From the IMG/VR virus record IMGVR_UViG_3300031957_000171, positions 1-55,065 of that record: DNA of 55,065 nt; one strand, given 5' to 3'. The notes beneath the pieces are model-generated. The model was given only the letters and a program-made list of their open reading frames with translations, was not told the DNA's origin and searched no databases. This DNA is from a virus. Below are positions 1-53,032 of this stretch, in pieces; the first letter of the stretch is position 1, and every line of letters begins with the position of its first letter. Made by a program: the position numbers and the translations under genes.

Positions 1-814
1 TGCTTTAGGCGACAACACTACTGGTGATAATAATACTGCGGTTGGTCACGATGCTTTAAGATTAAACACCACAGCTGATAATAACACAGCAGTGGGGCAT
101 GATTCTCTTGATGCCAACATCACTGGTGCTAGTAACACAGCAGTTGGTGCTTCTGCTTTAACTGACAACACTACAGGTGACTACAACAACGCAATGGGTG
201 TAAGTGCTTTAGGCGACAACACTACTGGTGATAATAATACTGCGGTTGGTCACGATGCTTTAAGATTAAACACCACAGCTGATAATAACACAGCGGTTGG
301 TAAAAGTGCTCTTGCTGTAACCACAGGTTTGTCAAATACTGCCATAGGATCTGATGCAGGTAATACTATCACAACTGGAACCTATAATGTTGCGATTGGA
401 TTTAATGCCCAACCAACAGCGGTTGATTCCGCCGGACAGTTTACTATGGGCGATACAAACATAACCACCCTACGCTGTAACGTTCAAACAATATCCTCCT
501 TGTCTGACTCTCGTGATAAGACAGATGTTATTGATTCACCTTATGGCTTAGACTTCATCAACACTATTAGACCTGTACAGTTTAAATGGGAAACTAGAGA
601 TGGTAATAAAAAAGATGGCACAAAAAGAGTTGGTTTTCTTGCTCAAGAATTACTTGAATCTTGTGACGGCAACAACGCAGTCTTAGATTTAGTCTTAGAT
701 GAGAACCCTGAGAAACTAGAGGCTAAGTATGGCAACCTATTACCTATTATGGTGCAAGCGATCAAAGAACTATCTGCAAAAGTGACTGAACTAGAGGATA
801 AATTAAATGGTTGA
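1..814 (+). CDS. Tail fibre, C-terminal part with S74 chaperone domain (5' truncated by window)
   Basis: The frame is open from base 2 and continues the fibre that runs off the right end at 55065. If the two ends join, the whole protein is 676 aa (53759-55065 plus 91-814). The visible part starts with NTAVGxxAL-type head repeats like those of trimeric adhesins. It then passes into an intramolecular chaperone domain of the endosialidase type (peptidase S74): SDSRDKTDV, GLDFINTIRPVQFKW and GFLAQELLE. S74 domains help fibres trimerise and then cut themselves off, normally next to the Ser-Asp step seen here. The C terminus is a short coiled coil. The role is host-surface recognition at the virion tail. 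The repeats are nearly identical at DNA level, so copy number may be misassembled. Confidence 0.85.
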   Translation, partial: ALGDNTTGDNNTAVGHDALRLNTTADNNTAVGHDSLDANITGASNTAVGASALTDNTTGDYNNAMGVSALGDNTTGDNNTAVGHDALRLNTTADNNTAVGKSALAVTTGLSNTAIGSDAGNTITTGTYNVAIGFNAQPTAVDSAGQFTMGDTNITTLRCNVQTISSLSDSRDKTDVIDSPYGLDFINTIRPVQFKWETRDGNKKDGTKRVGFLAQELLESCDGNNAVLDLVLDENPEKLEAKYGNLLPIMVQAIKELSAKVTELEDKLNG

Positions 815-12033: not shown

Positions 12034-12326
12034 TGGATGCTAAATTTTATATAAGCTTGGGAGTTGGACTGTTTGTACAGGCTGCTGGGATTGTCTGGTG
12101 GTTGGCAGGATTGCAAGCCAGTATGCAACACAATAACTTTCAAATACAAATGATAAACAAAGATGTACAAAAGAATTCAAACTTTGTAGAGCTATGGCCA
12201 GCTGGTAAGTGGGGTAGTGGCTCTCTACCAAGTGACGTTAGGCAAGACCTAAAGATTGGTAATCTTGAAATGCAAATGAACAAGCTCAATGAAAAGATTT
12301 TTAATGGTGGTTATAATAGGAAATGA
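12033..12326 (+). CDS. Small membrane protein, candidate holin/spanin partner
   Basis: 97 aa. One hydrophobic N-terminal span (about 6-27, YISLGVGLFVQAAGIVWWLA) precedes a soluble tail ending in a helical segment (KIGNLEMQMNKLNEKI). It starts at the last base of the endolysin stop and overlaps the NfuA-like gene by four bases. The layout suggests a lysis function (holin, antiholin or spanin), but there is no diagnostic motif. Confidence 0.5.
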   Translation: MDAKFYISLGVGLFVQAAGIVWWLAGLQASMQHNNFQIQMINKDVQKNSNFVELWPAGKWGSGSLPSDVRQDLKIGNLEMQMNKLNEKIFNGGYNRK

Positions 12327-12586
12327 CAACCTTTGCTAAAATAGAAAATATCTTAGCTGATGTTATTGCTCCTTCTATAGCTCAACACGGTGGGCTTATA
12401 CAATTATTATCTTACGATGAAGAAAAAAAGAATGTTCATGTAAAATTAACTGGCTCATGTGCAGGGTGCGCTGCCAGTTCATTTACCCTCAAGCTGGGTG
12501 TAGAGCAAACTCTTAAAGAATACCTGCCAGATGATGTAGAAAGTGTGTCACATGAGGACGGGGACATAATTAACCCCTATTACTGA
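12323..12586 (+). CDS. NifU C-terminal/NfuA-like Fe-S carrier
   Basis: 87 aa, equal to one NifU C-terminal domain. The key motif is GSCAGCAASSFTLKLG with Cys46 and Cys49 as the CxxC that holds a bridging Fe-S cluster. N-terminal helix features (VIAPSIAQHGG) also match the family. In cells Nfu proteins pass 4Fe-4S clusters to apo-enzymes. It is the last gene of the rightward unit and overlaps the membrane protein upstream. Its client in infection is unknown; a host Fe-S protein or a virion component are options. Confidence 0.85.
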   Translation: MTTFAKIENILADVIAPSIAQHGGLIQLLSYDEEKKNVHVKLTGSCAGCAASSFTLKLGVEQTLKEYLPDDVESVSHEDGDIINPYY

Positions 12587-12700: not shown

Positions 12701-13174
12701 TCAGTCTATCTCAGTGGTGTCTTCCTCTTCTTCTACCACCTCTATAGCTTCTTCTTCTTCATCCTCCATGAAATCACACTTGTTTAGTAGGATATATACT
12801 TTATCTGCACCCAAGATGTTTAAGCACTGCACTATACCTGACTCTAAAGACTTCTCATCAAGCACTCCATCCATGTCAGAGTTATTACCTCTAATCCTAG
12901 ACAATAATTCAAGAGCTTTCAGTGCGCTGTTGGTATGACCATTGGCTCTTGCAAATGTATATTGATTTTCAATCTCTTCAATAACATCTACATTGGTTAC
13001 AAGCTCATTCTCTAACTCCCTTACTCTCTCAGCAACCTCTTCGTTATTGATAAGCCTGTAGCCTTGGTTGGCTGCTGACGCTGCTGAGTATCCTGCTGAC
13101 TTGGCTGCTTCAGTTGCATTCCTATGAAGGATATAAGACTGAGCAAACTTCTCTTGCTTTTCGTTTAAAGCCAT
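12701..13174 (-). CDS. terS: Terminase small subunit
   Basis: 157 aa. The N-terminal region matches Terminase_2-type small subunits: LNEKQEKFAQSYILHRNAT, then AAKSAGYSAASAANQGYRLI, with helix-turn-helix DNA recognition of the packaging site. A central helical part (about 60-110) would drive oligomerisation. The tail is strikingly acidic (DEEEEAIEVVEEEEDTTE). Usually this gene sits next to the large subunit. Here it is the last gene of the leftward unit, about 21 kb from terL on the other strand. Confidence 0.85.
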   Translation of the reverse strand: MALNEKQEKFAQSYILHRNATEAAKSAGYSAASAANQGYRLINNEEVAERVRELENELVTNVDVIEEIENQYTFARANGHTNSALKALELLSRIRGNNSDMDGVLDEKSLESGIVQCLNILGADKVYILLNKCDFMEDEEEEAIEVVEEEEDTTEID

Positions 13175-13177
13175 TGG

Positions 13178-13579
13178 CTATTTCATATTGTTTCTAGCGA
13201 CACCCTTCCACTTCTCAGCAGTACGCATACCACCAAGACCTAGAAGAGAAAGCAAGAGTGTCATTAGAGCCTGTGTGTCCAGCACTGGTAGCACAACAAT
13301 AGGATACCAAATAGCAAAGCCCCAGCTTGCAATGGGTGCTACAATAAACTGCCACAGCAGAGCAAAGCAGCAGACCCACATGATGGCTGGCCTTGCTCCA
13401 CTTACAAAGATAGAGGGGTGCTTTGCCTGTTCGATGTTTGCTTCTGCTTGAGCAAGGTCAAGAGTAATTAACTGTGTTTTTAACTCTGCATTGAGTTTAG
13501 TCTTTAGGTCTTTATCCTCAACAAATTTATCAAGAATTTTACCTGCTACTCCGATAACTGAATCTGCAATTCCTAGCAT
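13178..13579 (-). CDS. Holin, GTA-type 3TM
   Basis: 133 aa. A soluble helical N-terminal half is followed by SGARPAIMWVCCFALLWQF and further hydrophobic stretches (APIASWGFAIWYPIVVLPV and ALMTLLLSLLGLGG), giving about three membrane spans. The R-P-x-I/L-M-W signature and ending (MRTAEKWKG) match the holin family used for gene-transfer-agent release and in many marine phages. It lies between the small terminase and a methyltransferase, away from the M15 endolysin on the other strand. Confidence 0.8.
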   Translation of the reverse strand: MLGIADSVIGVAGKILDKFVEDKDLKTKLNAELKTQLITLDLAQAEANIEQAKHPSIFVSGARPAIMWVCCFALLWQFIVAPIASWGFAIWYPIVVLPVLDTQALMTLLLSLLGLGGMRTAEKWKGVARNNMK

Positions 13580-14313
13580 TATTCTTCTCCTACTGTTACA
13601 TTATTTGTGTCTTTATCCATTTGAGTTAGGGGTATAATATTAATACGCTTATGTATTTTATACCCTTCTGTTATTAGTCTATCATCTTCATCTAAAACAT
13701 CAAAGAAAACATAGACACAGAAATCTGGATACTGTTTAGTAAAATCTTCCATGATATTACCAATGAACTGCATCCAATCATAGGGACTATGTAGAGAGAT
13801 GTGTGCGTTACTACCATCAGCTAACTTCTTTAGTGCTGGCATACAGGCGATGTTAAGAAAAGCTATCTTCTGAGAGTAGCTAAAGATTTCTCTGATCACC
13901 CAGTCTAAATCACTGGTAGGTACATGCTCTAGTACATCAGTTGAAATAACTGCATCATACAAACCCATAGGTAGTTTACTATGCTCTTCATGGCCGGGAT
14001 CAAACAAGGCTAACTTCTCCAATCCCCAATACTCATTAAGAGGTACAGTTAGTTTGGGATCGTCTCTAGTTACCTTGCCAAAGTCTTTAGTGTACAGTAG
14101 TCCTTTGCCACAACCATAATCAATTAGACTTTTGCATTCATGCTTGTCTAAATAGTTTTTAATTATATCAATATACTTTACAAGGCTTCTTCCATTGAAC
14201 ATGCCTTCAGCCTGTTTATGCATGTCTTTATATTCAGAAAGAAGATCAGTGTACCTCTTGGATGGCCCTTCTCTACTCAATAACTTATTACAATCAATCA
14301 TAGTATCCCTCAA
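13579..14313 (-). CDS. SAM-dependent methyltransferase
   Basis: 244 aa class I methyltransferase. Motif I is SLIDYGCGKGLL (about residues 62-73) for SAM binding, and motif IV-like YDAVISTDVLEHV is at about 119-131. The substrate is not evident. The gene overlaps the end of the large glycosyltransferase fusion by 20 bp and is followed at once by the holin. A glycan or small-molecule target is therefore more likely than DNA (no DPPY/NPPY motif is seen). Confidence 0.75.
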   Translation of the reverse strand: MRDTMIDCNKLLSREGPSKRYTDLLSEYKDMHKQAEGMFNGRSLVKYIDIIKNYLDKHECKSLIDYGCGKGLLYTKDFGKVTRDDPKLTVPLNEYWGLEKLALFDPGHEEHSKLPMGLYDAVISTDVLEHVPTSDLDWVIREIFSYSQKIAFLNIACMPALKKLADGSNAHISLHSPYDWMQFIGNIMEDFTKQYPDFCVYVFFDVLDEDDRLITEGYKIHKRINIIPLTQMDKDTNNVTVGEE

Positions 14314-16669
14314 ATTGCGGACGTTTTTCTAGTGCTTCCTTTATCTTCCATAGATCAGATACCATCGTATCTTTTCCGTGGAATGTCAAGATGCCTTCAA
14401 GACCTTCATCAGAGAAAATCTTCTCACAATCCTGACCCATAGCCAGAAGCTCTCCCGTAGTCCAGTAAGTATTCTTACCAACTGTTACTTGGAAGTACTT
14501 AGGTCTAGGTGATTCACCACCCTCTAAGTCTCCTGTAGTCTCAGTCTTCTGTTTCTTAGAAGGCTCTTTCATGGAGCAATCAAAACCAAATAGATGTATA
14601 TCTCTAAAGCCTAGTGTGTGCAGCATACCTATGCTACGCATGGCAGCACAAGTACCACCTGTAATTAGAGTAGCACCCTTGGGGATACCCAGTTCCTCTT
14701 CGATCTTTACCTGCTGGTTCCTAATCTCCTGTCCCTGATCTGACTCACTCCTCAGTGAATCTGTAAAGGCGTGCCATCCCCATACATCACACTTGTTTTC
14801 AATAAGATATTCTGTAACAGAAGGATCAGTCATGGAAGCCAGCATGAATTTAGTATTAGTATTGAGTTTCTTAAAGAGATTCTTACGGACAATACCATGT
14901 GTAGATACACCAGTAAGAGGACGTGGGTCAAGGATGACACATGCCCAAGGCTCAATACCATTCTTTAATAGAGTAGGATAGGAATGTTTAACACATACTA
15001 CTTTAATATCCTTGTTGTTTTTAATTAGCTTTTTAAGTTCAGTATAGTTAGTAAAGGGACCAGCCGATACTAGTACTGCTTTACCTTTATGTATAGGATG
15101 CTTGGTTACCCACTTCTTTTCATCCAGAAGTTCCATGTTAGAAATAATATTATTCCTAATGTATTCTTTAGGTACGCAATCTCTTGGATGTACAACTACT
15201 GGAACTCTTTTTAGTTCGTCAGGACATCCCGGTAGATTGTCATCGGAGAGTATAAGACAGAGATGAGTGTGACCACCACCAACAACATTATCACCAGAGG
15301 GTAGAACATACTTCCGAATATTAACGGTCTCATCGAATACAGTCCAACCATCCTCAGTAGTTTCTTGAGCGTCAACTTTCTTCGTAGGTATCTTATCAAA
15401 GACATTTTTAACTCCATGATATTCTTCAGGTGGTGTCTTGTCATCATCATCTTTAGTAAAGAAGTGATCCATCACTACCACAGGAACATGTTTCAGCATG
15501 GCGTACTCATGCTCTACAGTTTTAATACTATTACCACTACCTATCATTGCCAGATCAATCTTATCCAGCGTTAGAGATGTAAGAGTATTACGAACATTAC
15601 CTTTATACAGTTCAAAAGTAAACTTCTTATCAGTCTTCTTCATAACTTCAGTAAATTCATGCAGTCTCTTGGTGACTGCGGCATAAGTATTATGAGGCTT
15701 TACATTAAACTCTTCTTCATCAACCTCAATACTTGCATCTTCAAAGAGATCATATCCAATGTAGTGTACCTTGTCTGAGTTTTCAAAGGAAGCCAAAGAC
15801 ATTTCAATAGCACGTCCAGCATTCCATGTCCCTGTTTCTAAGATAGTCTCTGGTTTGTAAAGACGTATGATATCAGCAAGCTGCTTATATCTCTGCGGTA
15901 GAATGTCTGGAGATGTTTCTTCATCAGATAGTTTGAAAACTCTTTCACCATCAGAATCTCTAATAGCAACATTGGTGCTACCCTTAAGGTGGAGAAACAA
16001 ATCACTTACTATAGAGTTATCTCTCTCTAATTCATGTACTCGCATACCATGAGCAGTATAGATAGTCATTAACCTACTAAAGATAAAGCCATCATACCAC
16101 TCACGATAGTTCATAAACTCATTAGAAATGTAACAACCACGTAGATCACCAAGCATATCTACAGATGATTGACGTGAAAGATTAAATCCCTGTAGAAAAT
16201 AATCTGGTTCATCTTCATCATCTATTAGATAAACTACATCACATTTATCTTCGTTAATGGGTAGCATTTTATTGAGAGAATTTACTGTAATCTTTTTCTT
16301 GGAGATGGTATCAGCATCTATCCAGAATAACCAGCAGTCTTCATTATTAAATGCAGCCTCAGTCAACGCCATTACTTTAGGTATAAATGTAGCAGCATCT
16401 ATTGAACGATTGTACTGTACTTTTCCACCTTCAGTGCCGTCGTGGATTTTATTATTCTCCATACACTCAGCATAATCTTCTACCTCTTCTAAGTTATGGT
16501 AGAAGATATTATCAGCTTCAGGAAGAACATGTTTTTTAATATCTATATCATAGTAATAACAGTGTATATCTATAGATGACTGCCATGTCTTAGACATTAG
16601 ACTAAGAAGATGCGAAGACATCTCCTTTAGATATGCTTCATTAAAACATGTTACAAACTTATACTTCAT
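14294..16669 (-). CDS. Three-domain fusion: glycosyltransferase-like, methyltransferase-like, MptE/DUF115-like
   Basis: 791 aa. Residues 1-230 look like a GT-A glycosyltransferase, with WLFWIDADTIS giving the DxD metal site at about 118-120. Residues 260-400 look like a class I methyltransferase (PETILETGTWNAGRA, then KIDLAMIGSG). Residues 525-790 match the 6-hydroxymethylpterin pyrophosphokinase MptE-like/DUF115 fold shared with Maf-type glycosyltransferases: GKAVLVSAGPFTNYTELKKL, HSYPTLLKNGIEPWACVILD and FRDIHLFGFDCSM. It overlaps the glycosyltransferase upstream and the methyltransferase downstream. A role in building or modifying a surface glycan, host or virion, is inferred. Substrates are unknown. 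Confidence 0.7.
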   Translation of the reverse strand: MKYKFVTCFNEAYLKEMSSHLLSLMSKTWQSSIDIHCYYYDIDIKKHVLPEADNIFYHNLEEVEDYAECMENNKIHDGTEGGKVQYNRSIDAATFIPKVMALTEAAFNNEDCWLFWIDADTISKKKITVNSLNKMLPINEDKCDVVYLIDDEDEPDYFLQGFNLSRQSSVDMLGDLRGCYISNEFMNYREWYDGFIFSRLMTIYTAHGMRVHELERDNSIVSDLFLHLKGSTNVAIRDSDGERVFKLSDEETSPDILPQRYKQLADIIRLYKPETILETGTWNAGRAIEMSLASFENSDKVHYIGYDLFEDASIEVDEEEFNVKPHNTYAAVTKRLHEFTEVMKKTDKKFTFELYKGNVRNTLTSLTLDKIDLAMIGSGNSIKTVEHEYAMLKHVPVVVMDHFFTKDDDDKTPPEEYHGVKNVFDKIPTKKVDAQETTEDGWTVFDETVNIRKYVLPSGDNVVGGGHTHLCLILSDDNLPGCPDELKRVPVVVHPRDCVPKEYIRNNIISNMELLDEKKWVTKHPIHKGKAVLVSAGPFTNYTELKKLIKNNKDIKVVCVKHSYPTLLKNGIEPWACVILDPRPLTGVSTHGIVRKNLFKKLNTNTKFMLASMTDPSVTEYLIENKCDVWGWHAFTDSLRSESDQGQEIRNQQVKIEEELGIPKGATLITGGTCAAMRSIGMLHTLGFRDIHLFGFDCSMKEPSKKQKTETTGDLEGGESPRPKYFQVTVGKNTYWTTGELLAMGQDCEKIFSDEGLEGILTFHGKDTMVSDLWKIKEALEKRPQFEGYYD

Positions 16670-17441
16670 TATACATGTCCATTGGCTTTATTTTTCCTCG
16701 TCCGGCTAGGTATGTATAATCCCCATTCCATTCGGCTGCATACTTACCATCACTAGTCCGGCCACACTTCCAATCTTTAAACCAAGGACCACCTGTTGTA
16801 AAGTGTACGTTCTTGGCATCCATGTCTTCTGGAGAATGATTGTCCAACCAGTTCCATTCTTCATGGATGCTACCAATATCAGAATCTTTATCAGGCAACC
16901 ACTCAAAGCCGTGCAAGTATCCACCAGTCTCTGTGTTTACAAGTTCAGGAGTAAGCTTCTTATTGAGCTTGTGACTACAGTTAAAGAGCATTAGACTAGA
17001 CCAATTCTTACGTCGGTAGTCCTGTTGTTTACGTCCATCCATTTTAACACCATCACCCGGTGCATACTTATGTTTAACACAGTACAGTGGGTAGTAGTCT
17101 GAGTTATACTCTTCAAAGATTTCATTGATGTCAGTACGTAGGTACATGTCAGAGTCCATGTACAAGGCCCAGCCTTCATACATGTTCATGGCTGGCACCA
17201 AGAAGCGAGTGAAACTAAACTCACTTGAGAAGGGCTTGCCGTCAATCTTATCAATAGTTTGTCCATCAACTACATCAAACTCTCTGGTGTACATACCCAT
17301 TCGCTCTGCGACATCACGCCGGATAGGTACAACACGTACATTATCTACGGCTATCCGTTCAATGGTAAACTTTAAAACTTCATAGGCTGTATTCTCTTTA
17401 GGATCATATCCTATGTATACAGTGTTAGGTGATTTCTTCAT
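16659..17441 (-). CDS. Glycosyltransferase, GT-A fold (GT8-like)
   Basis: 260 aa. Features: VYIGYDPKENTAYEV at the N terminus, the sugar-nucleotide and metal motif GWALYMDSDMYLRTD with DSD at 96-98, and VHFTTGGPWF near residue 225, typical of GT8-type retaining enzymes. No membrane span is seen. It overlaps the HNH gene upstream and the fusion gene downstream, so the three glycan-related genes are co-transcribed. The donor and acceptor are unknown. Confidence 0.75.
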   Translation of the reverse strand: MKKSPNTVYIGYDPKENTAYEVLKFTIERIAVDNVRVVPIRRDVAERMGMYTREFDVVDGQTIDKIDGKPFSSEFSFTRFLVPAMNMYEGWALYMDSDMYLRTDINEIFEEYNSDYYPLYCVKHKYAPGDGVKMDGRKQQDYRRKNWSSLMLFNCSHKLNKKLTPELVNTETGGYLHGFEWLPDKDSDIGSIHEEWNWLDNHSPEDMDAKNVHFTTGGPWFKDWKCGRTSDGKYAAEWNGDYTYLAGRGKIKPMDMYNEV

Positions 17442-18006
17442 CTATATTCCTTTTTTCATTTCCATGATTAGGGTGAAAATTATAATTAATACTTGCTACT
17501 GCTCTGACTGCTGCTGCTTCTTCAACAGTGTCATAATATCCTAAATGTTTTTTAATATAATTTATAGATATTTCTGCACAATATTTTCTGTACCGTTTAT
17601 AAAACCTCACACCTGAATAACCAGTTGTACTATTGGTTTGTAGTGTTCTATTTTTATTATTTTCAGCCTGAGTTACATCTCTAAGATTTTTTATTCTATT
17701 ATCTGTAGGGTCTTGGTTGATATGGTCTATATGATTTTTAGGCCACTCACCATAATATATTAACCATACTATACGATGTGCAGTATAGTTTTTGTTGAGC
17801 ACACGACCACCTAACCTAGATATCTGTCCAGAATTTCTACGAGTAATGTTTGTAAGTGCTTCTTTACCAGCCCATCTAGTATTCCAAGACTTCATATTTA
17901 TTTTAAAGTTCTTAAAATATTTTGGTGATCTTTCTTTCCAGAAGAGTTTACCAGTATCAGGATTGTAAGTTAATAATTCTCTAGCTATTTCAGCAGTAAG
18001 TTCCAT
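17425..18006 (-). CDS. Homing endonuclease, HNH plus AP2 DNA-binding domain
   Basis: 193 aa. The HNH core (HRIVWLIYYGEW, then HIDHINQDPTDNRIKNLR) is followed by an AP2-type DNA-binding domain (GYSGVRFYKRYRKY ... HLGYYDTVEEAAAVRAVASI). This combination is typical of free-standing phage homing endonucleases. It sits between nrdB and the glycan genes and is preceded by its own strong promoter, as expected of an inserted mobile gene. Likely selfish; it could also cut related phages during co-infection. Confidence 0.85.
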   Translation of the reverse strand: MELTAEIARELLTYNPDTGKLFWKERSPKYFKNFKINMKSWNTRWAGKEALTNITRRNSGQISRLGGRVLNKNYTAHRIVWLIYYGEWPKNHIDHINQDPTDNRIKNLRDVTQAENNKNRTLQTNSTTGYSGVRFYKRYRKYCAEISINYIKKHLGYYDTVEEAAAVRAVASINYNFHPNHGNEKRNIDEEIT

Positions 18007-18016
18007 AATAATTATC

Positions 18017-18045
18017 CTTATACACTATATTTGTTTACTTGTCAA
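18017..18045 (-). promoter_or_regulatory. Sigma70-like promoter for HNH and glycan genes
   Basis: On the minus strand TTGACA (18045-18040), a 17-bp spacer and TATAAG (18022-18017). The -35 box overlaps the nrdB stop. The predicted start of transcription near 18010 is only a few bases before the ATG at 18006, so the message would be almost leaderless. Confidence 0.7.
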
Positions 18046-19022
18046 GCACTTTCTGCCCATACTTCTGACCAGCTACCACTCAATGCACCCTTTGCATAGT
18101 CAGTAGAGTGGTTCTCAAAGAAGTTAGTATGAGTAGGTGCATTAATCATAGTCTCTACCCAAGGCAGAGGATTACGTTTGACCTTAAAGATACCCTTCAT
18201 ACCCATAGAGATAAGCCTACGGTCTGCAATGTACCTGATGTATTCCTTTACTTCAGTATCCCTAAGACCTTCTACCTTACCCATCTTAAATGATAGGTCT
18301 ACAAACTTATCTTCTAGGTCAACCATAGTCTCTGCAATGCTATAGATGGTTGACTTGGTTTCGTCGTTCCACTCCTCACGGTTCTCTTCGATGTAAGTTC
18401 TAAAGAGTTGGATCATACCCTCTGCATGTTGTGTCTCATCTACAATAGACCACGTTACAATCTGTCCCATGCCCTTCATCTTACCATGACGTGGAAAGTT
18501 AAGCAACATAATAAAGCTAGAGAACAATGCTAGCCCCTCAGTAAAGGCAGAGATAGCAGCAATCTTAATAGGCAAAGATATTTTCTTACTGTTTACATTA
18601 GCCATAAAGTACTCATGCTTCTCACGCATGGCATCGTACTCCAAGAACTCATTGTATGTAGAGTCAGGCATACCCAGTGATTCAATCAAGTGTGAGTAGG
18701 CTGCAATGTGTAGTGCTTCCCTAGCAGCAAAGCCTGACAACATCATACGTACTTCAGGCTGTGGGAAGTTAGGTAGGTAATTATCAATGTACCCACCAGC
18801 TACATCAATGTCAGACTGAGTAAAGAACCTAAAGATATTAGTTAAGAAATACTTCTCTTCAGTAGAGAGGGTATTCTTCCAGTCTTTAATGTCTTCCATC
18901 ATAGGTACTTCAGTGTGCAGCCAGTGAGACTGCTCATGTTTCAACCACAGGTCATACGCCCACGGGTAGTGAAACGGTTTGAAGTAGTCACGTTTATCTT
19001 GAAGCTTTAATTTACTGGTCAT
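18042..19022 (-). CDS. nrdB: Ribonucleotide reductase, class I beta subunit
   Basis: 326 aa from the ATG at 19022 (MTSKLKLQDKRDYFKPF). A longer frame up to 19109 overlaps another small gene and lacks family similarity. It is the ferritin-like radical subunit. Carboxylate/histidine ligands appear in TQSDIDV, REALHIAAY, FTEGLALF and VDETQHAEG. The Tyr of AAYSHLIESL is at the position of the stable tyrosyl radical. It partners NrdA to make dNTPs from ribonucleotides for phage DNA. One short gene lies between nrdA and nrdB. Confidence 0.92.
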   Translation of the reverse strand: MTSKLKLQDKRDYFKPFHYPWAYDLWLKHEQSHWLHTEVPMMEDIKDWKNTLSTEEKYFLTNIFRFFTQSDIDVAGGYIDNYLPNFPQPEVRMMLSGFAAREALHIAAYSHLIESLGMPDSTYNEFLEYDAMREKHEYFMANVNSKKISLPIKIAAISAFTEGLALFSSFIMLLNFPRHGKMKGMGQIVTWSIVDETQHAEGMIQLFRTYIEENREEWNDETKSTIYSIAETMVDLEDKFVDLSFKMGKVEGLRDTEVKEYIRYIADRRLISMGMKGIFKVKRNPLPWVETMINAPTHTNFFENHSTDYAKGALSGSWSEVWAESA

Positions 19023-19173
19023 AGTATGGCCTCTTTCCTCTGTTGTCTTTCCACTGCCTTGGTATGCCCTCTTCGTGATCAAAAGTATAGTGGCTGTTCC
19101 ACATAGCACAAGATATACTAGTAAAAATTCCGTATCCCTTTGATCTTAAGTGACAGTACCACTTGTATATCAT
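19012..19173 (-). CDS. Small protein within the nrd operon, 53 aa
   Basis: The ATG is one base after the nrdA stop, with GAGGGT upstream, and the gene overlaps the nrdB start by 11 bp. The sequence (MIYKWYCHLRSKGYGIFTS ... EEGIPRQWKDNRGKRPYYDQ) is aromatic and basic, with two Cys. It fills the whole nrdA-nrdB gap, which supports its being real. It has no recognised family; a glutaredoxin CxxC is not present. Confidence 0.55.
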   Translation of the reverse strand: MIYKWYCHLRSKGYGIFTSISCAMWNSHYTFDHEEGIPRQWKDNRGKRPYYDQ

Positions 19174-19174
19174 A

Positions 19175-20974
19175 CTAACCCTCACAAGCCAAACACTCCT
19201 CACCAGAAGCAAGTGCTTCCATATCAATCTCTTGTATAATCTCTCGTTCAATCTTACGTGATACCTTGTCAGCCTTGCCAATCTTTTCAGAACGGCAGTA
19301 GTACATAGTCTTGACCCCTTTCTTCCATGCCATGAAGTGTACAGCATGTAGGTAGGTGATGTTTGCATCTGGCCTAAAGAAAACATTGAGTGACTGAGAC
19401 TGATCAATATATTCCTGCCTATCAGCAGCATGTTCAATCACCCACCGCTGATCAATCTCCATAGAAGTCTTGTATATCTCTTTCTCTTGATCGTCCAAGC
19501 AGCGTAGGTGCTGCACTGAACCATCGTTAGCAATGATTGAAGACCAGATACGATCATAGTTTAAGTTAATATTCTCTTCACACTTATCTTTAATAAGCTT
19601 ATCTAAGAACTTGTTTTTATTCAAGAAAGAACCACTCAAGGTATCCTGTCTGTAGGCGTTAGCTCTCCACGGTTCAATAGATGGAGAAGTATTGCCCATG
19701 ATAATAGAGGAAGAAGCATTAGGTGCAATAGCCATGACATGACTACACCTTAGTCCAGTGCCTTGAGCATCAGGAGCCTCGCCTCTCTCACGTCCAAGCT
19801 CAAGGTTGGCTGAGTCAAGCCCTGATCTAATGTGTCTAAACATTTTCATGTTTGAAGACTTAGCCAAGGCAGATTCAAAAGGCATACCCTTCTTCTGTAG
19901 GTAAGCATGAAAACCCAAGGCTCCAACACCTACACTACGTTCACGCATTGCTGAATATTTAGCACGGCTAATACTATCAGGAGCATCTTCAATAAACTTA
20001 CTCAGAGTATTATCCAACATCTCCAGCACATCTTTAAGAAAGCCTTTGTCTTTAGACCACTCATCAAAGTATTCTAGGTTAAGAGAAGACAAGCAGCATA
20101 CAGCAGTCCGATCCTTATTAGTTGGTAGTATAATCTCTGAACATAAGTTAGACTGATTAATCTCCAAGCCAAGCTGCTTCAACCATACCGGCATCTTCTC
20201 ATTGGATGTATCAATAAAGTGTAGGTATGGCTCGCCTGTTTGCATACGCATCTCTAAGATACGCTGCCACATATCCCTTGCTGATACAGTCTCTTTAATT
20301 TCTTTTGTATGTGGATCACGTAGGTTCCAGCTGTCATCTACATTGGGATCAGTCATGCAATCTTCAATAAGCTGCATAAACTTATTGCTGATATTAATAC
20401 CATGGTGGAGGTTCAAACATCTAAAGTTTTGATCACCAGTAGGCTTACGCATTTCCAAGAACAAGATAATATCAGGGTGATCTATGTCTAGATAGGCAGC
20501 ATAGCTTCCCCTACGTGTACGTCCCTGACGGTAGGCTAGGCTGGAGGCATCATACATCTTTAGATGTGGCATCATACCCGTTGACTTGTCATCAGCAGAA
20601 CGAATACCAAAACCAATACCTACACCACCACCATACATGGACAGCCAGTTAGTCTCTGATAGATTGTTTACTAACCCTTCAGCAGTGTCATCAATGTAGT
20701 TAAGGTAACACGAGATGGGTAGCCCACGCTTGGACCTACCGTAAGATAGTATAGGAGTAGAGTAAGACAACCAATGCTTAGAGGCATAGTCATAAAGTCT
20801 TTGGGCGTGATCGTTATCAGTAGAAAATGTTTTAGATACAAAAGCAAATCTCTCTTGCGGAGACAACTCATTATCCATCATGTAAGATTCTTTAAGCCTA
20901 GCAATACCAAGCTCATCAAACAAATGATCTTGTGCGGGGTTGATGTTGATGCCAAGGTGGGTCATTTGAGGCAT
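19175..20974 (-). CDS. nrdA: Ribonucleotide reductase, class I alpha subunit
   Basis: 599 aa, without an N-terminal ATP cone. Catalytic features: PISCYLN (redox Cys), NQSNLCSEI (radical Cys), SSLNLEYF, and the phosphate-binding region SIEPWRANAYRQ. The C terminus EECLACEG supplies the mobile Cys pair that accepts electrons from thioredoxin. The lack of an ATP cone suggests no dATP activity brake, common in phage enzymes. It is followed by a 53-aa gene and nrdB and preceded by a DUF3310 gene three bases away. Confidence 0.95.
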   Translation of the reverse strand: MPQMTHLGININPAQDHLFDELGIARLKESYMMDNELSPQERFAFVSKTFSTDNDHAQRLYDYASKHWLSYSTPILSYGRSKRGLPISCYLNYIDDTAEGLVNNLSETNWLSMYGGGVGIGFGIRSADDKSTGMMPHLKMYDASSLAYRQGRTRRGSYAAYLDIDHPDIILFLEMRKPTGDQNFRCLNLHHGINISNKFMQLIEDCMTDPNVDDSWNLRDPHTKEIKETVSARDMWQRILEMRMQTGEPYLHFIDTSNEKMPVWLKQLGLEINQSNLCSEIILPTNKDRTAVCCLSSLNLEYFDEWSKDKGFLKDVLEMLDNTLSKFIEDAPDSISRAKYSAMRERSVGVGALGFHAYLQKKGMPFESALAKSSNMKMFRHIRSGLDSANLELGRERGEAPDAQGTGLRCSHVMAIAPNASSSIIMGNTSPSIEPWRANAYRQDTLSGSFLNKNKFLDKLIKDKCEENINLNYDRIWSSIIANDGSVQHLRCLDDQEKEIYKTSMEIDQRWVIEHAADRQEYIDQSQSLNVFFRPDANITYLHAVHFMAWKKGVKTMYYCRSEKIGKADKVSRKIEREIIQEIDMEALASGEECLACEG

Positions 20975-21525: not shown

Positions 21526-21862
21526 GTTCTTTTCTCCTTAGTAAAAGATTTAGTTTATGTCTTACTTCTTTATTGTTGTCTGAGTTAATAACATAAGATG
21601 CAAACTCCCTAACCTTATTAGGATTAAGGTCAGCGTAGTCACATATAAACTCAAAGTTTTCACTGGTCACACCTATAGAAGCGAAGAACCAATTGGTAGC
21701 TTCTCTTCTTAGAGATGTAATACTACTTGATTCAGTAATACTTTTAGACTTAGTTGCATCCAATAGAGCTTGGTATATAACAGATAAGAATAAAATATTG
21801 TTTGAATCTTTTTTACTTTCTTCCTGTAACTCTAGTATATTATTTATATTTTGTTGGTTCAT
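21518..21862 (-). CDS. Hypothetical protein, 114 aa
   Basis: I prefer the ATG at 21862 (MNQQNINNILELQEESKK); the frame extends to 21898 inside the neighbour. All-helical and hydrophilic, with the conserved-looking segment REATNWFFASIGVTSENFEF and ICDYADLNPNKVREFA. Similar short proteins occur in phage early regions, but I cannot name the family. It overlaps the GIY-YIG-like gene by 23 bp. Confidence 0.55.
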   Translation of the reverse strand: MNQQNINNILELQEESKKDSNNILFLSVIYQALLDATKSKSITESSSITSLRREATNWFFASIGVTSENFEFICDYADLNPNKVREFASYVINSDNNKEVRHKLNLLLRRKELE

Positions 21863-22268
21863 CCTCAAACTCTTGTACTGGCCTGTAGAACTTACCACCT
21901 ACATAGTTATTATAATATGCCGCTTCGTCTGTACCTTCTAAGACAGAAGACAGTACATTATATTTCATCTGGTAGTATAGCTCATAGTATTTTAGGCTTC
22001 TTTTATTTTTAAACTCAGCTATAATTTCAAACTTAAAACTTCTCTTGCCTAACTTTTTAATATCTTCTAGCAGTGACTTAGAAGAACCCATATAAATAAG
22101 CCAGTTAGATTCTCTTTTGGTTGGTGCAGTACTACCCTTCTTTCTTTTCACTGGGTGCCAATACTGCTTGCAACCTACATAAGCTTTGCCTGTTTTCTTA
22201 TTTGTAATAAGATAGACAAACCCAAAGTGTTTCTTTGGATTTGGTTTCTTACTATATTTCCAGTGCAT
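21840..22268 (-). CDS. GIY-YIG-like nuclease, putative homing type
   Basis: 142 aa. The N terminus FGFVYLITNKKTGKAYVGCK carries a degenerate GIY...YIG pair (FVY and YVG). The helical region KKLGKRSFKFEIIAEFKNKR and a Glu in LKYYELYYQMKYNVL fit the GIY-YIG active site. It sits within the replication block as a free-standing gene, typical of homing endonucleases. No separate DNA-binding domain is seen. Confidence 0.65.
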   Translation of the reverse strand: MHWKYSKKPNPKKHFGFVYLITNKKTGKAYVGCKQYWHPVKRKKGSTAPTKRESNWLIYMGSSKSLLEDIKKLGKRSFKFEIIAEFKNKRSLKYYELYYQMKYNVLSSVLEGTDEAAYYNNYVGGKFYRPVQEFEDEPTKYK

Positions 22269-50049: not shown

Positions 50050-50324
50050 TGGCAAGTAATAAGAACGCAATAGCCATGTGTGATACATGTGGCTTTGTCT
50101 ACCCTCATCGGATAATGCGTTTTAATAGTTATGGTATGTTAGTATGTCCTACAGACTTTGAAGGACAGTTTGATCTAAAGAACCACCCACAAAATAAAAT
50201 TCCCGATGTCAGAGACAACCCTGCTATACGTGACCCACGCCCTGACAATGGCGGTAGGAATATAACATGGGCACAAGCTACGACTAACTGGGAAGACACA
50301 GACAAGTATTGGAACCTCATATGA
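50049..50324 (+). CDS. Zinc-ribbon small protein, 91 aa
   Basis: A CDTCG knuckle and a second Cys (LVCPTDFEGQFD) suggest a zinc site. The C-terminal part (DVRDNPAIRDPRPDNGGRNI, then TNWEDTDKYWNLI) is typical of small proteins next to adaptor genes in marine podoviruses. Probably structural. Its stop overlaps the fibre start. Confidence 0.6.
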   Translation: MASNKNAIAMCDTCGFVYPHRIMRFNSYGMLVCPTDFEGQFDLKNHPQNKIPDVRDNPAIRDPRPDNGGRNITWAQATTNWEDTDKYWNLI

Positions 50325-53032
50325 CTGAACTAACCGGAAAAACAATTGCTAATACATATAAGCAACTACTAAGAGTAGGTGTAAGTACAAATACTGGTGT
50401 TAGTGCTGGTCTATCTACTATTGAAACTGGAGATGGAACTGATAGTTCTTTCCAACTTGCTACTGGTTCTGCTAAGTTTACAGGTTCATTAGTTATAGAT
50501 GGTGCTACTTCTATTGCTTCTGGTTTACATGTAGATCAAAAAGTATGTGCTTCTGCGTTTTATGGTGATGGTTCTAATCTAAGTGGTGTTACTGCAAGTC
50601 TTGCTACAAGTATCTGTGTTAGTAATGCCCTAATTAATAATATTCTTTTGGTTAATGGTGAAGCTACCTTTAATTCCAATGTTTCTGTATCAGGTGGTTT
50701 AAATGTAGGTGGTACAGTAACCATTGCTGGTGCTGTAAGTATGGCCTCTACTCTTAGTGTAGGCGGTGCTGCACATTTTGCATCTACTGTAACTGTAGTA
50801 GGCGCTGCGACATTTGATAATAATGTTTCAGTAAGTGGTATTTTAAATGTTCTTGGTGCAGCTACATTTACTTCTCAGGCTAACTTTAAAGCTGGAGTAT
50901 CAGTTTCTGGTGCTTTAAATGTCTCTGGCAATACTTCTGTTGGTGGAACATTCATGGCAACAGGCGTAGCTACATTTGATAATAATGTATCTATAAGCGG
51001 CGGTCTTGTTGTAGGAGGTACAGTAACAATAGTAGGAGCCAATGTACAGGCAGCTAATGCAAGGGTCTGTGCATCTGCTTATCATGGTGATGGTTCAAAT
51101 ATAACTAATATCAGTGGTGCTCAAATATCAGGTGATATCTCTGTAAGTAACATAAAGGCTGCTGGCAATGTATCAGTAGGTGGTGCTTTTTATGTTGGAG
51201 GTACTGTTACTATAGCAGGAACAAATATAAAAGCTGTTAATGCTGCGGTCTGTGCATCTTCTTTTTATGGTGATGGTTCTAACTTAACTAATATTGCTGC
51301 ATCTATTGTTAATAATAGAGTTGCAGGTAACTTTGCTGTATCTGCTAATCTAAGTGTAGGTGGTACAAGTAATTTTGCAGGTGCGGTGAGTTTAGCATCT
51401 ACTCTAAGTGTAGTAGGTGCTGCTAACTTTGCATCTACTGTAACAGTAGTAGGAGCTACACATTTACAGAGTACTGTATCAACAGCAGGTGCAGCTAACT
51501 TTGCATCTACAGTAACAGTTGTAGGAGCTACACATTTACAGAATACAGTTTCAGTGGGAGGTGCAGCTAACTTTGCATCTACAGTAACAGTAGTAGGAGC
51601 TACACATTTACAGAGTACTGTATCAACAGCAGGTGCTGCAACATTTGCATCTACTGTAACAGTAGTAGGAGCTACACATTTACAGAATACAGTTTCAGTG
51701 GGAGGTGCAGCTAACTTTGCATCTACAGTAACAGTTGTAGGTGCAGGAACATTTAAGAGTAATGTGTCAGTAAGCGGTACTACTAAGCTACTGGGTACAG
51801 TTACTGCAACAGGTAATTCAGGATTTTTAGGAACTGTTAGAGTAAGTGGCGCAACAAGCCTTGAAGCTGCTCTTAATGTTACAGGTGCAGCTTTATTCTC
51901 ATCTACAGTAACAGTAGCTGGAGCAACACATTTACAAAGCACTGCTTCAGTGGGTGGAGCAGCTTCTTTTGCTTCAACATTGACTGTAGTAGGAGCAACA
52001 CTCTTACAAAGCACTGTCTCAGTGGGTGGCGCAGCTATCTTTGCATCTACTGTTACAGTTGTTGGAAACGCAGTATTTACTGGTGACATCCAAAAGAAAA
52101 CAGCAGGTACATCTAACTTTTCTGCGGGTGTTAACGCCGGTAATTCAATAGAATCAGGCGGCAACTACAACGTAGTAGTAGGCGATGAAGCTGGTACGGC
52201 GATTACTACCGGAGATAATAACACAGCAGTGGGTTTTGCTTCCCTAGATGCTAACACTACAGGTTCTAGTAACACAGCATTTGGTAGAAATTCCCTTGGT
52301 GGCAACACGTCTGCGTCTAACGGCACAGCCCTTGGACATAATGCTTTAATATCTAACACCACTGGTGCTTTTAACACAGCGGTCGGCGGTTCTGCTCTCG
52401 ATGCCACTACCACAGGCTCTAGTAACACAGCCGTTGGTTATGATGCTCTTGGTGTCAATACCGAAGGGTCTAATAATACAGCCATCGGTATAGCTTCGGG
52501 TCACACAGTGACTACGGGGGGCAACAATCTTCTTCTCGGACACGACGCTGGGATAACGGGAAGTCCCGGTGGTGCTGTAACAACCGGAAACAATCAGATA
52601 TGTTTGGGTGATGAGAATATAACCAATGCACACATCCAAGTTGACTGGACAGTAGCCTCAGACAAGAGAGATAAGACTGAGGTCACTCCTCTGGTTATGG
52701 GGCTAGACTTTATAAACAAACTAGAGCCTGTTACCTATCGCTGGGATAAACGATCAAAGTATTCCAAAGATCAAGACGTAACGCCAGACGGCACCCATAA
52801 AGAAGAACAGCTAGATGTAGGTTTCTTGGCTCAAGACGTTGAGGAACTTGAAAAAGAATACGGGTTTAACTTTGAAGATAAGACAAATCTGACAACAAAC
52901 ATCTCTGAAGATGAAAAGATGTATGGGCTGAAATACTCTAAGTTTGTTCCGGCCCTTGTTAAAGCAGTACAAGAACTATCTAAAGAACTAGACGAACTTA
53001 AACAATGGAAAAATAATTATACTAGTGACTGA
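50321..53032 (+). CDS. Tail fibre 1 with S74 chaperone domain
   Basis: 903 aa from the ATG at 50321 (MTELTGKTIANTYKQLLRV), whose ATGA overlaps the previous stop; a TTG 12 bases earlier is less likely. N-terminal attachment part, then repeating strands of the ANFASTVTVVGATHLQ type, then NTAVGxxAL head-like repeats (about 630-780). The C-terminal S74 module includes WTVASDKRDKTEV, GLDFINKLEPVTYRWDKRS and VGFLAQDVEELEKEYG. S74 self-cleaves at Ser-Asp. Shares a DNA-level block with fibre 2 at 53759. Confidence 0.88.
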   Translation: MTELTGKTIANTYKQLLRVGVSTNTGVSAGLSTIETGDGTDSSFQLATGSAKFTGSLVIDGATSIASGLHVDQKVCASAFYGDGSNLSGVTASLATSICVSNALINNILLVNGEATFNSNVSVSGGLNVGGTVTIAGAVSMASTLSVGGAAHFASTVTVVGAATFDNNVSVSGILNVLGAATFTSQANFKAGVSVSGALNVSGNTSVGGTFMATGVATFDNNVSISGGLVVGGTVTIVGANVQAANARVCASAYHGDGSNITNISGAQISGDISVSNIKAAGNVSVGGAFYVGGTVTIAGTNIKAVNAAVCASSFYGDGSNLTNIAASIVNNRVAGNFAVSANLSVGGTSNFAGAVSLASTLSVVGAANFASTVTVVGATHLQSTVSTAGAANFASTVTVVGATHLQNTVSVGGAANFASTVTVVGATHLQSTVSTAGAATFASTVTVVGATHLQNTVSVGGAANFASTVTVVGAGTFKSNVSVSGTTKLLGTVTATGNSGFLGTVRVSGATSLEAALNVTGAALFSSTVTVAGATHLQSTASVGGAASFASTLTVVGATLLQSTVSVGGAAIFASTVTVVGNAVFTGDIQKKTAGTSNFSAGVNAGNSIESGGNYNVVVGDEAGTAITTGDNNTAVGFASLDANTTGSSNTAFGRNSLGGNTSASNGTALGHNALISNTTGAFNTAVGGSALDATTTGSSNTAVGYDALGVNTEGSNNTAIGIASGHTVTTGGNNLLLGHDAGITGSPGGAVTTGNNQICLGDENITNAHIQVDWTVASDKRDKTEVTPLVMGLDFINKLEPVTYRWDKRSKYSKDQDVTPDGTHKEEQLDVGFLAQDVEELEKEYGFNFEDKTNLTTNISEDEKMYGLKYSKFVPALVKAVQELSKELDELKQWKNNYTSD
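51421..51780 (+). repeat. 72-bp tandem repeats in fibre 1 gene
   Basis: A 72-bp unit (24 aa) centred on GCATCTACTGTAACAGTAGT recurs at 51428, 51500, 51572, 51644 and 51716. Two alternating forms give a higher-order 144-bp repeat; less similar units lie on either side. This can drive length change by recombination. Confidence 0.8.

What the first reader, a model, noticed from the sequence alone, without database searches (positions are those of the whole stretch)
14294..16669. Three-domain fusion of glycosyltransferase, methyltransferase and MptE-like folds
One 791-aa protein carries a GT-A-like DxD domain, a class I methyltransferase-like domain and an MptE/DUF115 domain akin to Maf nonulosonic-acid transferases. 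It is flanked by another glycosyltransferase and another methyltransferase. It may build, cap and modify a surface sugar, to mask the virion or change the host receptor.
Basis: partly seen in the sequence, partly recalled or inferred. Interest (0 to 1): 0.75.

Follow-up and report, generated by a model that had tools for sequence, protein, structure and literature searches.

The report
Marine phage three-part glycosylation enzyme
A large family of uncultured marine phages carries a three-gene set built around one long protein that joins three sugar-handling parts, probably to put or finish a sugar on the virus particle or its host's surface; it is a new variant of enzymes known from flagella and algal viruses rather than a new kind of system.

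Summary
Window 14294-16669, minus strand, encodes a 791-aa protein with three confidently predicted domains: GT-A fold (about 1-244; closest listed solved structures PBCV-1 capsid glycosyltransferase A064R, bovine alpha-1,3-galactosyltransferase), a COMT-like SAM-binding fold (about 245-478), and an MptE-like/DUF115 domain (526-701, Pfam E 3e-14). The last two together match the Maf flagellin glycosyltransferase 5MU5. Corrections: the methyltransferase-like domain has an intact SAM motif but, in all 78 representatives, has lost the metal-binding Asp (IDxD to IGSG); the DxD is intact in the window but lost in 40 of 78 relatives, on at least two branches, mostly with a second acidic residue, under strong purifying selection (dN/dS about 0.06-0.13). 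Hundreds of IMG/VR contigs carry it; in 197 distinct loci a partner GT lies upstream and, exactly when the internal methyltransferase-like domain is present, a methyltransferase gene downstream (124/124 versus 0/30). Simpler forms exist: GT-A alone, as in cultured Pelagibacter phage Mosig, and GT-A+MptE. Best reading: a phage-encoded, Maf/A064R-like glycan-building enzyme. Donor, acceptor and target (virion or host surface) are unknown.

The parts
14294..16669 (-). Three-domain gene, 791 aa (stop codon 14294-14296): GT-A fold + COMT-like fold + MptE-like
15938..16669 (-). Domain 1, residues 1-244: GT-A fold, A064R-D1-like; standalone homologue Mosig_00189
   Evidence: pLDDT about 90; Z 15.0 to 2p6w, 186 residues aligned; 51-bit profile hit to Mosig_00189
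16310..16318 (-). DAD (DxD) motif, residues 118-120; intact here, lost in 40 of 78 representatives
15236..15937 (-). Domain 2, residues 245-478: COMT-like / Maf N-domain-like Rossmann fold
   Evidence: Z about 16 to COMT; part of the 5mu5 match
15812..15838 (-). SAM-binding motif I ETGTWNAGR, residues 278-286; E, G, W, N, G, R invariant in 78/78
15527..15541 (-). GSGNS, residues 377-381, in place of the metal-binding IDxD of COMT-type enzymes; G377 and G379 invariant in 78/78
14564..15184 (-). Domain 3, residues 496-702: MptE-like (PF01973) domain, Maf / Cst-II type fold
   Evidence: E 3e-14; 5mu5; 5mu5 and 8sd5 best by sequence
14297..14563 (-). C-terminal region 703-791 with conserved YWTTGELLAM.QDCEK; present also in the MT-less 540-aa form
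16659..17441 (-). Upstream partner GT ('GT260'), 260 aa; DxD (D96, D98) invariant in 65/65 and a C-terminal HFTTGGPW motif; overlaps the fusion gene by 11 bp
   Evidence: phrog_28018; present in 154/154 three-domain loci with enough upstream sequence
13579..14313 (-). Downstream class I methyltransferase ('MT244'), 244 aa; overlaps the fusion gene by 20 bp
   Evidence: Methyltransf_23 E 6.6e-6 (just under cut-off), phrog_24759 E 8e-17; in 122/122 three-domain loci with enough downstream sequence
13178..13579 (-). Holin, next gene in the operon
   Evidence: GTA_holin_3TM E 6e-14, phrog_3427
12701..13174 (-). Terminase small subunit
   Evidence: Terminase_2 E 6e-15

Best explanation
A phage-encoded glycan-building enzyme of mixed Maf-like and A064R-like build, made in one operon with a second GT-A glycosyltransferase and a methyltransferase. 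Inferred mechanism: the MptE-like domain is the conserved sugar-transferring core, using an activated sugar taken from the host, as Maf does. The COMT-like domain next to it is the counterpart of Maf's N-terminal Rossmann domain and probably still binds SAM; whether it methylates is open, because the usual metal site is gone. The N-terminal GT-A domain is an active metal-dependent transferase in the window phage, and in about half of the family it has become a conserved non-catalytic, probably substrate-holding, domain. The separate methyltransferase probably methylates the product, since its gene is present exactly when the internal methyltransferase-like domain is. The acceptor is most likely a virion protein glycosylated in the cytoplasm before assembly (about 0.4), with a host surface glycan second (about 0.25). 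Shown here: the folds, motifs, conservation, gene linkage and modular history. Inferred: catalysis, donor, acceptor and target.
For: Fold: 5mu5 Maf is the top PDB match over model residues 241-775; A064R-D1 and alpha-1,3-galactosyltransferase match the N-domain. Sequence: PF01973 E 3e-14; among solved structures the MptE profile finds 5mu5 (E 0.019) and archaeal MptE 8sd5 (E 0.37) first, both weak. Linkage: GT260 upstream in 154/154 and MT244 downstream in 122/122 three-domain loci, MT244 in 0/25 MT-less loci. Modularity with other glycan genes: the standalone GT-A domain sits beside the GT260 homologue in Mosig, with two FkbM methyltransferases, a sulfotransferase and further GTs; in the MT-less form the third gene is a roughly 303-aa protein related to Mosig_00185/00187, and in one standalone locus that type of domain is fused to GT260 and matches Capsule_synth weakly (E 0.2). 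Active-site logic: DxD and D193 go together, 38/38 versus 12/40. Purifying selection in all domains. Literature: Maf N-domain weakly methyltransferase-like, central domain Cst-II-like (PMC11339370); A064R is a three-domain GT-GT-methyltransferase that finishes the PBCV-1 capsid glycan (PMC9614988).
Against: No substrate or product is known. No sugar-nucleotide or nonulosonate gene was found among the window proteins scanned. The NCBIfam Maf model is far below cut-off. The metal-binding Asp of the methyltransferase-like domain is absent in the whole family. The 5mu5 match has 9% identity and rmsd 14.4 A because the relative domain placement differs. The host of the window phage is unknown.
Confidence: 0.6

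Rival explanations
1. The cassette edits a host surface glycan (lipopolysaccharide or exopolysaccharide) in the infected cell, changing the phage receptor to block superinfection or to stop released virions sticking to debris.
For: GT, methyltransferase and sulfotransferase genes cluster in Mosig; a neighbour protein type weakly resembles Capsule_synth (E 0.2).
Against: No membrane-anchored GT, flippase or polymerase was recognised in the window. The closest studied analogues, Maf and A064R, act on proteins. The genes lie late in the replication operon next to holin and TerS.
Confidence: 0.25
2. The COMT-like domain is not an enzyme at all but a structural or ligand-binding counterpart of Maf's N-terminal domain. 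This can be true together with the best explanation.
For: IGSG replaces the metal-binding IDxD in 78/78; Maf's N-domain is described as a degenerate Rossmann fold with weak methyltransferase similarity (PMC11339370); a 540-aa form lacks the domain altogether.
Against: Motif I and the acidic D307 are invariant (78/78), dN/dS is about 0.08-0.13, and the domain is present exactly when MT244 is. Cation-independent methyltransferases of this fold exist (general knowledge).
Confidence: 0.4
3. It is a pterin pyrophosphokinase, as the Pfam name suggests, acting in cofactor metabolism.
For: PF01973 hit; weak sequence match to MptE 8sd5, E 0.37.
Against: Fused to a GT-A domain and invariably linked to a second GT; no pterin or folate genes among the scanned window proteins; the Maf structure matches better over two domains.
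Confidence: 0.04
4. It glycosylates or otherwise hypermodifies phage DNA.
For: Phage glycosyltransferases with that role are known (T4; general knowledge); genes are near ribonucleotide reductase.
Against: No base-hydroxymethylating enzyme was recognised in the window; the folds match protein- or glycan-directed enzymes.
Confidence: 0.04
5. The fusion is a decaying remnant.
For: The DxD is lost in 40/78 representatives and the metal motif of the methyltransferase-like domain in all.
Against: Reading frames are intact in the relatives read, and dN/dS is about 0.06-0.13 in every domain, including the DxD-less N-domain.
Confidence: 0.03

Closest known systems
Maf motility-associated glycosyltransferase (M. 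magneticum, PDB 5MU5; Maf/PseD family)
   Same: Rossmann/methyltransferase-like domain followed by an MptE-like (PF01973) domain with Cst-II-like fold; Z 18.5 over model residues 241-775
   Different: An extra N-terminal GT-A domain; the SAM motif is intact rather than degenerate; the Maf C-terminal helical bundle (after chain residue 502) is not in the alignment; only 9% identity; far below the NCBIfam Maf cut-off
A064R of chlorovirus PBCV-1 (GT - GT - methyltransferase on the major capsid glycan)
   Same: Virus-encoded three-domain transferase; domain 1 has the same GT-A fold (Z 15.0, 186 residues); a separate methyltransferase (A061L) acts after it, as MT244 may here
   Different: Domains 2 and 3 are of other types and order: here a methyltransferase-like domain in the middle and MptE-like at the end; no detectable sequence identity beyond about 9%
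GT-A gene Mosig_00189 with GT Mosig_00188 (Pelagibacter phage Mosig EXVC030M)
   Same: Homologues of domain 1 (51 bits) and of GT260 (206 bits), adjacent genes, DxD intact
   Different: Separate genes; no MptE-like domain among the scanned neighbours; the methyltransferases are FkbM type
A0A6J7X5Q0, uncultured Caudovirales phage (BFVD)
   Same: Same architecture over its full 714 aa (Foldseek E 2.5e-56, 25% identity); annotated only as 'methyltransferase domain containing protein'
   Different: A distant member; no function assigned
MptE 6-hydroxymethyl-7,8-dihydropterin pyrophosphokinase (PDB 8SD5)
   Same: PF01973 domain; weak sequence match (E 0.37)
   Different: Single domain, archaeal cofactor enzyme; here fused and clustered with glycan genes

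Membership tests
PF01973 MptE-like / DUF115 | Pfam score above the curated cut-off | tested here: met
   53.6 bits vs 34.6; 17/17 members scanned match
Maf / PseD flagellin glycosyltransferase (NF050051) | NCBIfam score above the curated cut-off | tested here: not met
   23.5 bits vs 670
Maf / PseD flagellin glycosyltransferase (NF050051) | N-terminal Rossmann domain followed by the central Maf_flag10 domain | tested here: met
   5mu5 Z 18.5, model 241-775 vs chain 31-502, 350 residues aligned, 9% identity, rmsd 14.4 A over both domains
Maf / PseD flagellin glycosyltransferase (NF050051) | C-terminal helical bundle | tested here: inconclusive
   chain residues after 502 are not in the alignment; the window C-terminus (703-791) is a small alpha/beta region
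Maf / PseD flagellin glycosyltransferase (NF050051) | Transfer of a CMP-nonulosonic acid to Ser/Thr of a protein | not testable with these tools
   needs biochemistry
GT-A fold glycosyltransferase | GT-A fold | tested here: met
   Z 15.0 to A064R-D1, 186 residues, 3.0 A; Foldseek E 7e-7 to alpha-1,3-galactosyltransferase
GT-A fold glycosyltransferase | DxD motif in the window protein | tested here: met
   D118-A-D120, also in the standalone and MT-less relatives shown
GT-A fold glycosyltransferase | DxD conserved across the three-domain family | tested here: not met
   38/78; replaced by DPx, EPL, NTN or DAN on at least two branches
GT-A fold glycosyltransferase | Match to a named Pfam GT family above cut-off | tested here: not met
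   best is Glycos_transf_2 E 0.0088 in one member
Class I SAM methyltransferase, COMT/TylF type | Fold and SAM motif I | tested here: met
   COMT Z 16.1; E278, G280, W282, N283, G285, R286 and D307 in 78/78
Class I SAM methyltransferase, COMT/TylF type | Metal-binding Asp of the IDxD motif after strand 4 | tested here: not met
   IGSG or IGGG in 78/78; aligned to FIDAD of 3r3h in a weak alignment
Class I SAM methyltransferase, COMT/TylF type | Pfam Methyltransf_24 / TylF above cut-off in the window protein | tested here: not met
   15.8 bits vs 26.3
A064R-type viral capsid transferase | GT - GT - methyltransferase domain order | tested here: not met
   order here is GT-A - methyltransferase-like - MptE-like

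The most novel reading that the evidence does not exclude
A widespread lineage of marine phages glycosylates its own particles with a phage-encoded Maf-like enzyme, and within it the attached GT-A domain has turned at least twice from catalyst into a conserved non-catalytic sugar- or acceptor-binding domain, while a SAM-binding domain without the usual metal site was gained or lost together with a separate methyltransferase gene.
Probability: 0.3. Interest if true: 0.75.

Novelty: new variant of a known kind. Interest (0 to 1): 0.55.

Why it matters
No phage carrying this three-gene set was found in the collection of deposited phage genomes, yet it is fixed in a large marine phage lineage. If it decorates virions, it would be a dedicated phage particle glycosylation system comparable to that of chloroviruses, and it would affect adsorption and recognition in the ocean. 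The natural series (GT-A alone, GT-A+MptE, full fusion with and without DxD) makes the role of each domain directly testable, and bears on what the methyltransferase-like domain of Maf proteins does.

Tried and rejected
First AlphaFold2 run with 10 near relatives was poor (pLDDT 54) and was not used. tblastn of the whole protein against INPHARED phages: no match. First scan of GTDB genomes: none; the second gave two contigs filed under bacterial MAGs, of which L243 carries RNR, holin and other phage-like genes, so mis-binned phage contigs are likely; L242 was not examined closely. Profile comparison of GT260 with the fusion: no homology seen between the two GT domains. Sequence search of the GT-A profile against PDB gave only noise. 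A BREX paper mentioning DUF115 did not bear on the question. Pterin metabolism and DNA modification were considered and put low. Absence of named GT families from the fold list is not taken as evidence.

Full report
What is there. The ORF at 14294-16669 is real but lies on the minus strand. It is the second of three overlapping genes: a 260-aa GT-like protein (16659-17441), the 791-aa fusion (overlap 11 bp) and a 244-aa methyltransferase (13579-14313, overlap 20 bp), followed by a holin and a terminase small subunit. Upstream lie ribonucleotide reductase genes, an HNH endonuclease and replication genes. The record is a 55,065-base virus contig whose large terminase is about 40% identical to HTVC023P-type pelagiphages; its host is unknown.

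Domains. Sequence alone gives PF01973 MptE-like (E 3.1e-14, residues 526-701) and a sub-threshold Methyltransf_24; across 17 members MptE-like is found in 17, Methyltransf_24 in 10 and TylF in 8. With a 78-sequence alignment AlphaFold2 gives mean pLDDT 85 and pTM 0.55, so the folds are reliable and the packing is not. The top PDB match is the Maf flagellin glycosyltransferase 5mu5 (Foldseek E 1.1e-7; Z 18.5, model 241-775 against chain 31-502). Residues 1-244 match the GT-A domain of A064R, the PBCV-1 capsid glycosyltransferase (Z 15.0, 186 residues) and alpha-1,3-galactosyltransferase; residues 244-478 match COMT-type methyltransferases (Z about 16). Published work describes Maf as a degenerate, weakly methyltransferase-like Rossmann domain, a Cst-II-like Maf_flag10 domain and a helical C-terminus (PMC11339370).

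Family. None of the 50,697 INPHARED phages matches the whole protein. After removal of identical genes, 163 loci have all three domains, 25 have GT-A+MptE without the methyltransferase-like domain, 5 have GT-A alone, and 4 show only GT-A and the methyltransferase-like domain, at least some because contig ends cut the gene. GT260 is upstream in 154/154 three-domain loci with enough sequence; MT244 is downstream in 122/122 (124/124 with the partial ones) and in 0/25 MT-less and 0/5 GT-A-only loci. The MT-less set looks like one lineage, so the last contrast may be a single event. Many loci are near relatives, so these counts are not independent.

Modules. In cultured Pelagibacter phage Mosig EXVC030M a standalone GT-A gene (Mosig_00189, 51 bits to the domain-1 profile) adjoins the GT260 homologue (Mosig_00188, 206 bits), within a run holding two FkbM methyltransferases, a sulfotransferase and further GTs. 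In MT-less loci a roughly 303-aa protein takes the place of MT244; it is related to Mosig_00185 and 00187. In locus L273 that type of domain appears fused to GT260 (the fused half was read by eye and matches Capsule_synth only weakly). Such mixing with glycan genes is the main contextual support for a glycan role.

Active sites. In 78 representatives at 90% identity the DxD is present in 38 and lost in 40 (DPx, EPL, NTN, DAN). A tree built without the N-domain needs three changes, at least two forced by well-supported branches; direction is not proven by the tree, but all MT-less and standalone relatives have DxD, which points to loss. A second acidic residue, D193 of REWHD, is present in 38/38 DxD carriers and 12/40 others. 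dN/dS is about 0.06-0.13 in every domain, including the DxD-less N-domains (simple Nei-Gojobori counts, dS near 1 in that group, so rough). This fits a pseudoenzyme under selection, not decay. In the methyltransferase-like domain most of motif I and D307 are invariant, but the metal-binding IDxD is IGSG or IGGG in all. In the MptE-like domain S535, G537, K561, D581-P-R583, S589-T-H591, S612-M-T-D615, G671-G-T-C674 and R678 are invariant. The window protein itself keeps DxD and D193.

How it likely works. By analogy with Maf (Ser/Thr glycosylation of flagellin; PMC11339370) and A064R (two rhamnosyl transfers and one methylation finishing a capsid glycan; PMC9614988), the cassette probably adds one or more sugars, and a methyl group through MT244, to an acceptor in the infected cell. 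Sugar donors would come from the host: no nucleotide-sugar gene was seen among the window proteins scanned. A virion protein is the first guess, a host surface glycan the second. All catalytic steps, the donor and the target are inferred.

Novelty. MptE-like and GT/methyltransferase proteins of uncultured phages are already in public databases under generic names, and one full-length distant relative (A0A6J7X5Q0) is in BFVD. The literature searches made here found no study of them, within an open-access library only. I rate this a new variant of a known kind, interest 0.55.

Noticed in passing
window 18045-20974 and L149, L161, L153, L243: The ribonucleotide reductase next to the cassette differs between relatives: class I large and small subunits in the window, while several relatives have a different reductase-like gene of about 640 aa in the same place and lack the small subunit.
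   Followed up: partly
window 12323-12586 (+): An 87-aa NifU-like protein (Pfam E 6e-21), a possible iron-sulfur scaffold gene, conserved in several relatives.
   Followed up: no
window 17425-18006 (-): An HNH endonuclease (HNH_3, weak AP2) sits between the reductase and the GT gene and is present only in some relatives, so it looks like a mobile gene.
   Followed up: partly
window 92-814 and 50309-53032 (+): Two proteins with Peptidase_S74 (endosialidase chaperone) domains, the larger one a tail spike or fibre: possible glycan-binding tail proteins in the same phage.
   Followed up: no
window 21840-22268 (-): A 142-aa protein with an N-terminus like GIY-YIG endonucleases (read by eye, not searched).
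   Followed up: no
L149 2740-3153, L161 2758-3171: Distant relatives carry a roughly 138-aa gene that looks like a small heat-shock protein (Hsp20) just upstream of the cassette (read by eye).
   Followed up: no
L242, L243: Two contigs filed as bacterial MAGs (Sneathiella, Flavobacteriaceae) carry the cassette; L243 at least looks like a mis-binned phage contig.
   Followed up: partly
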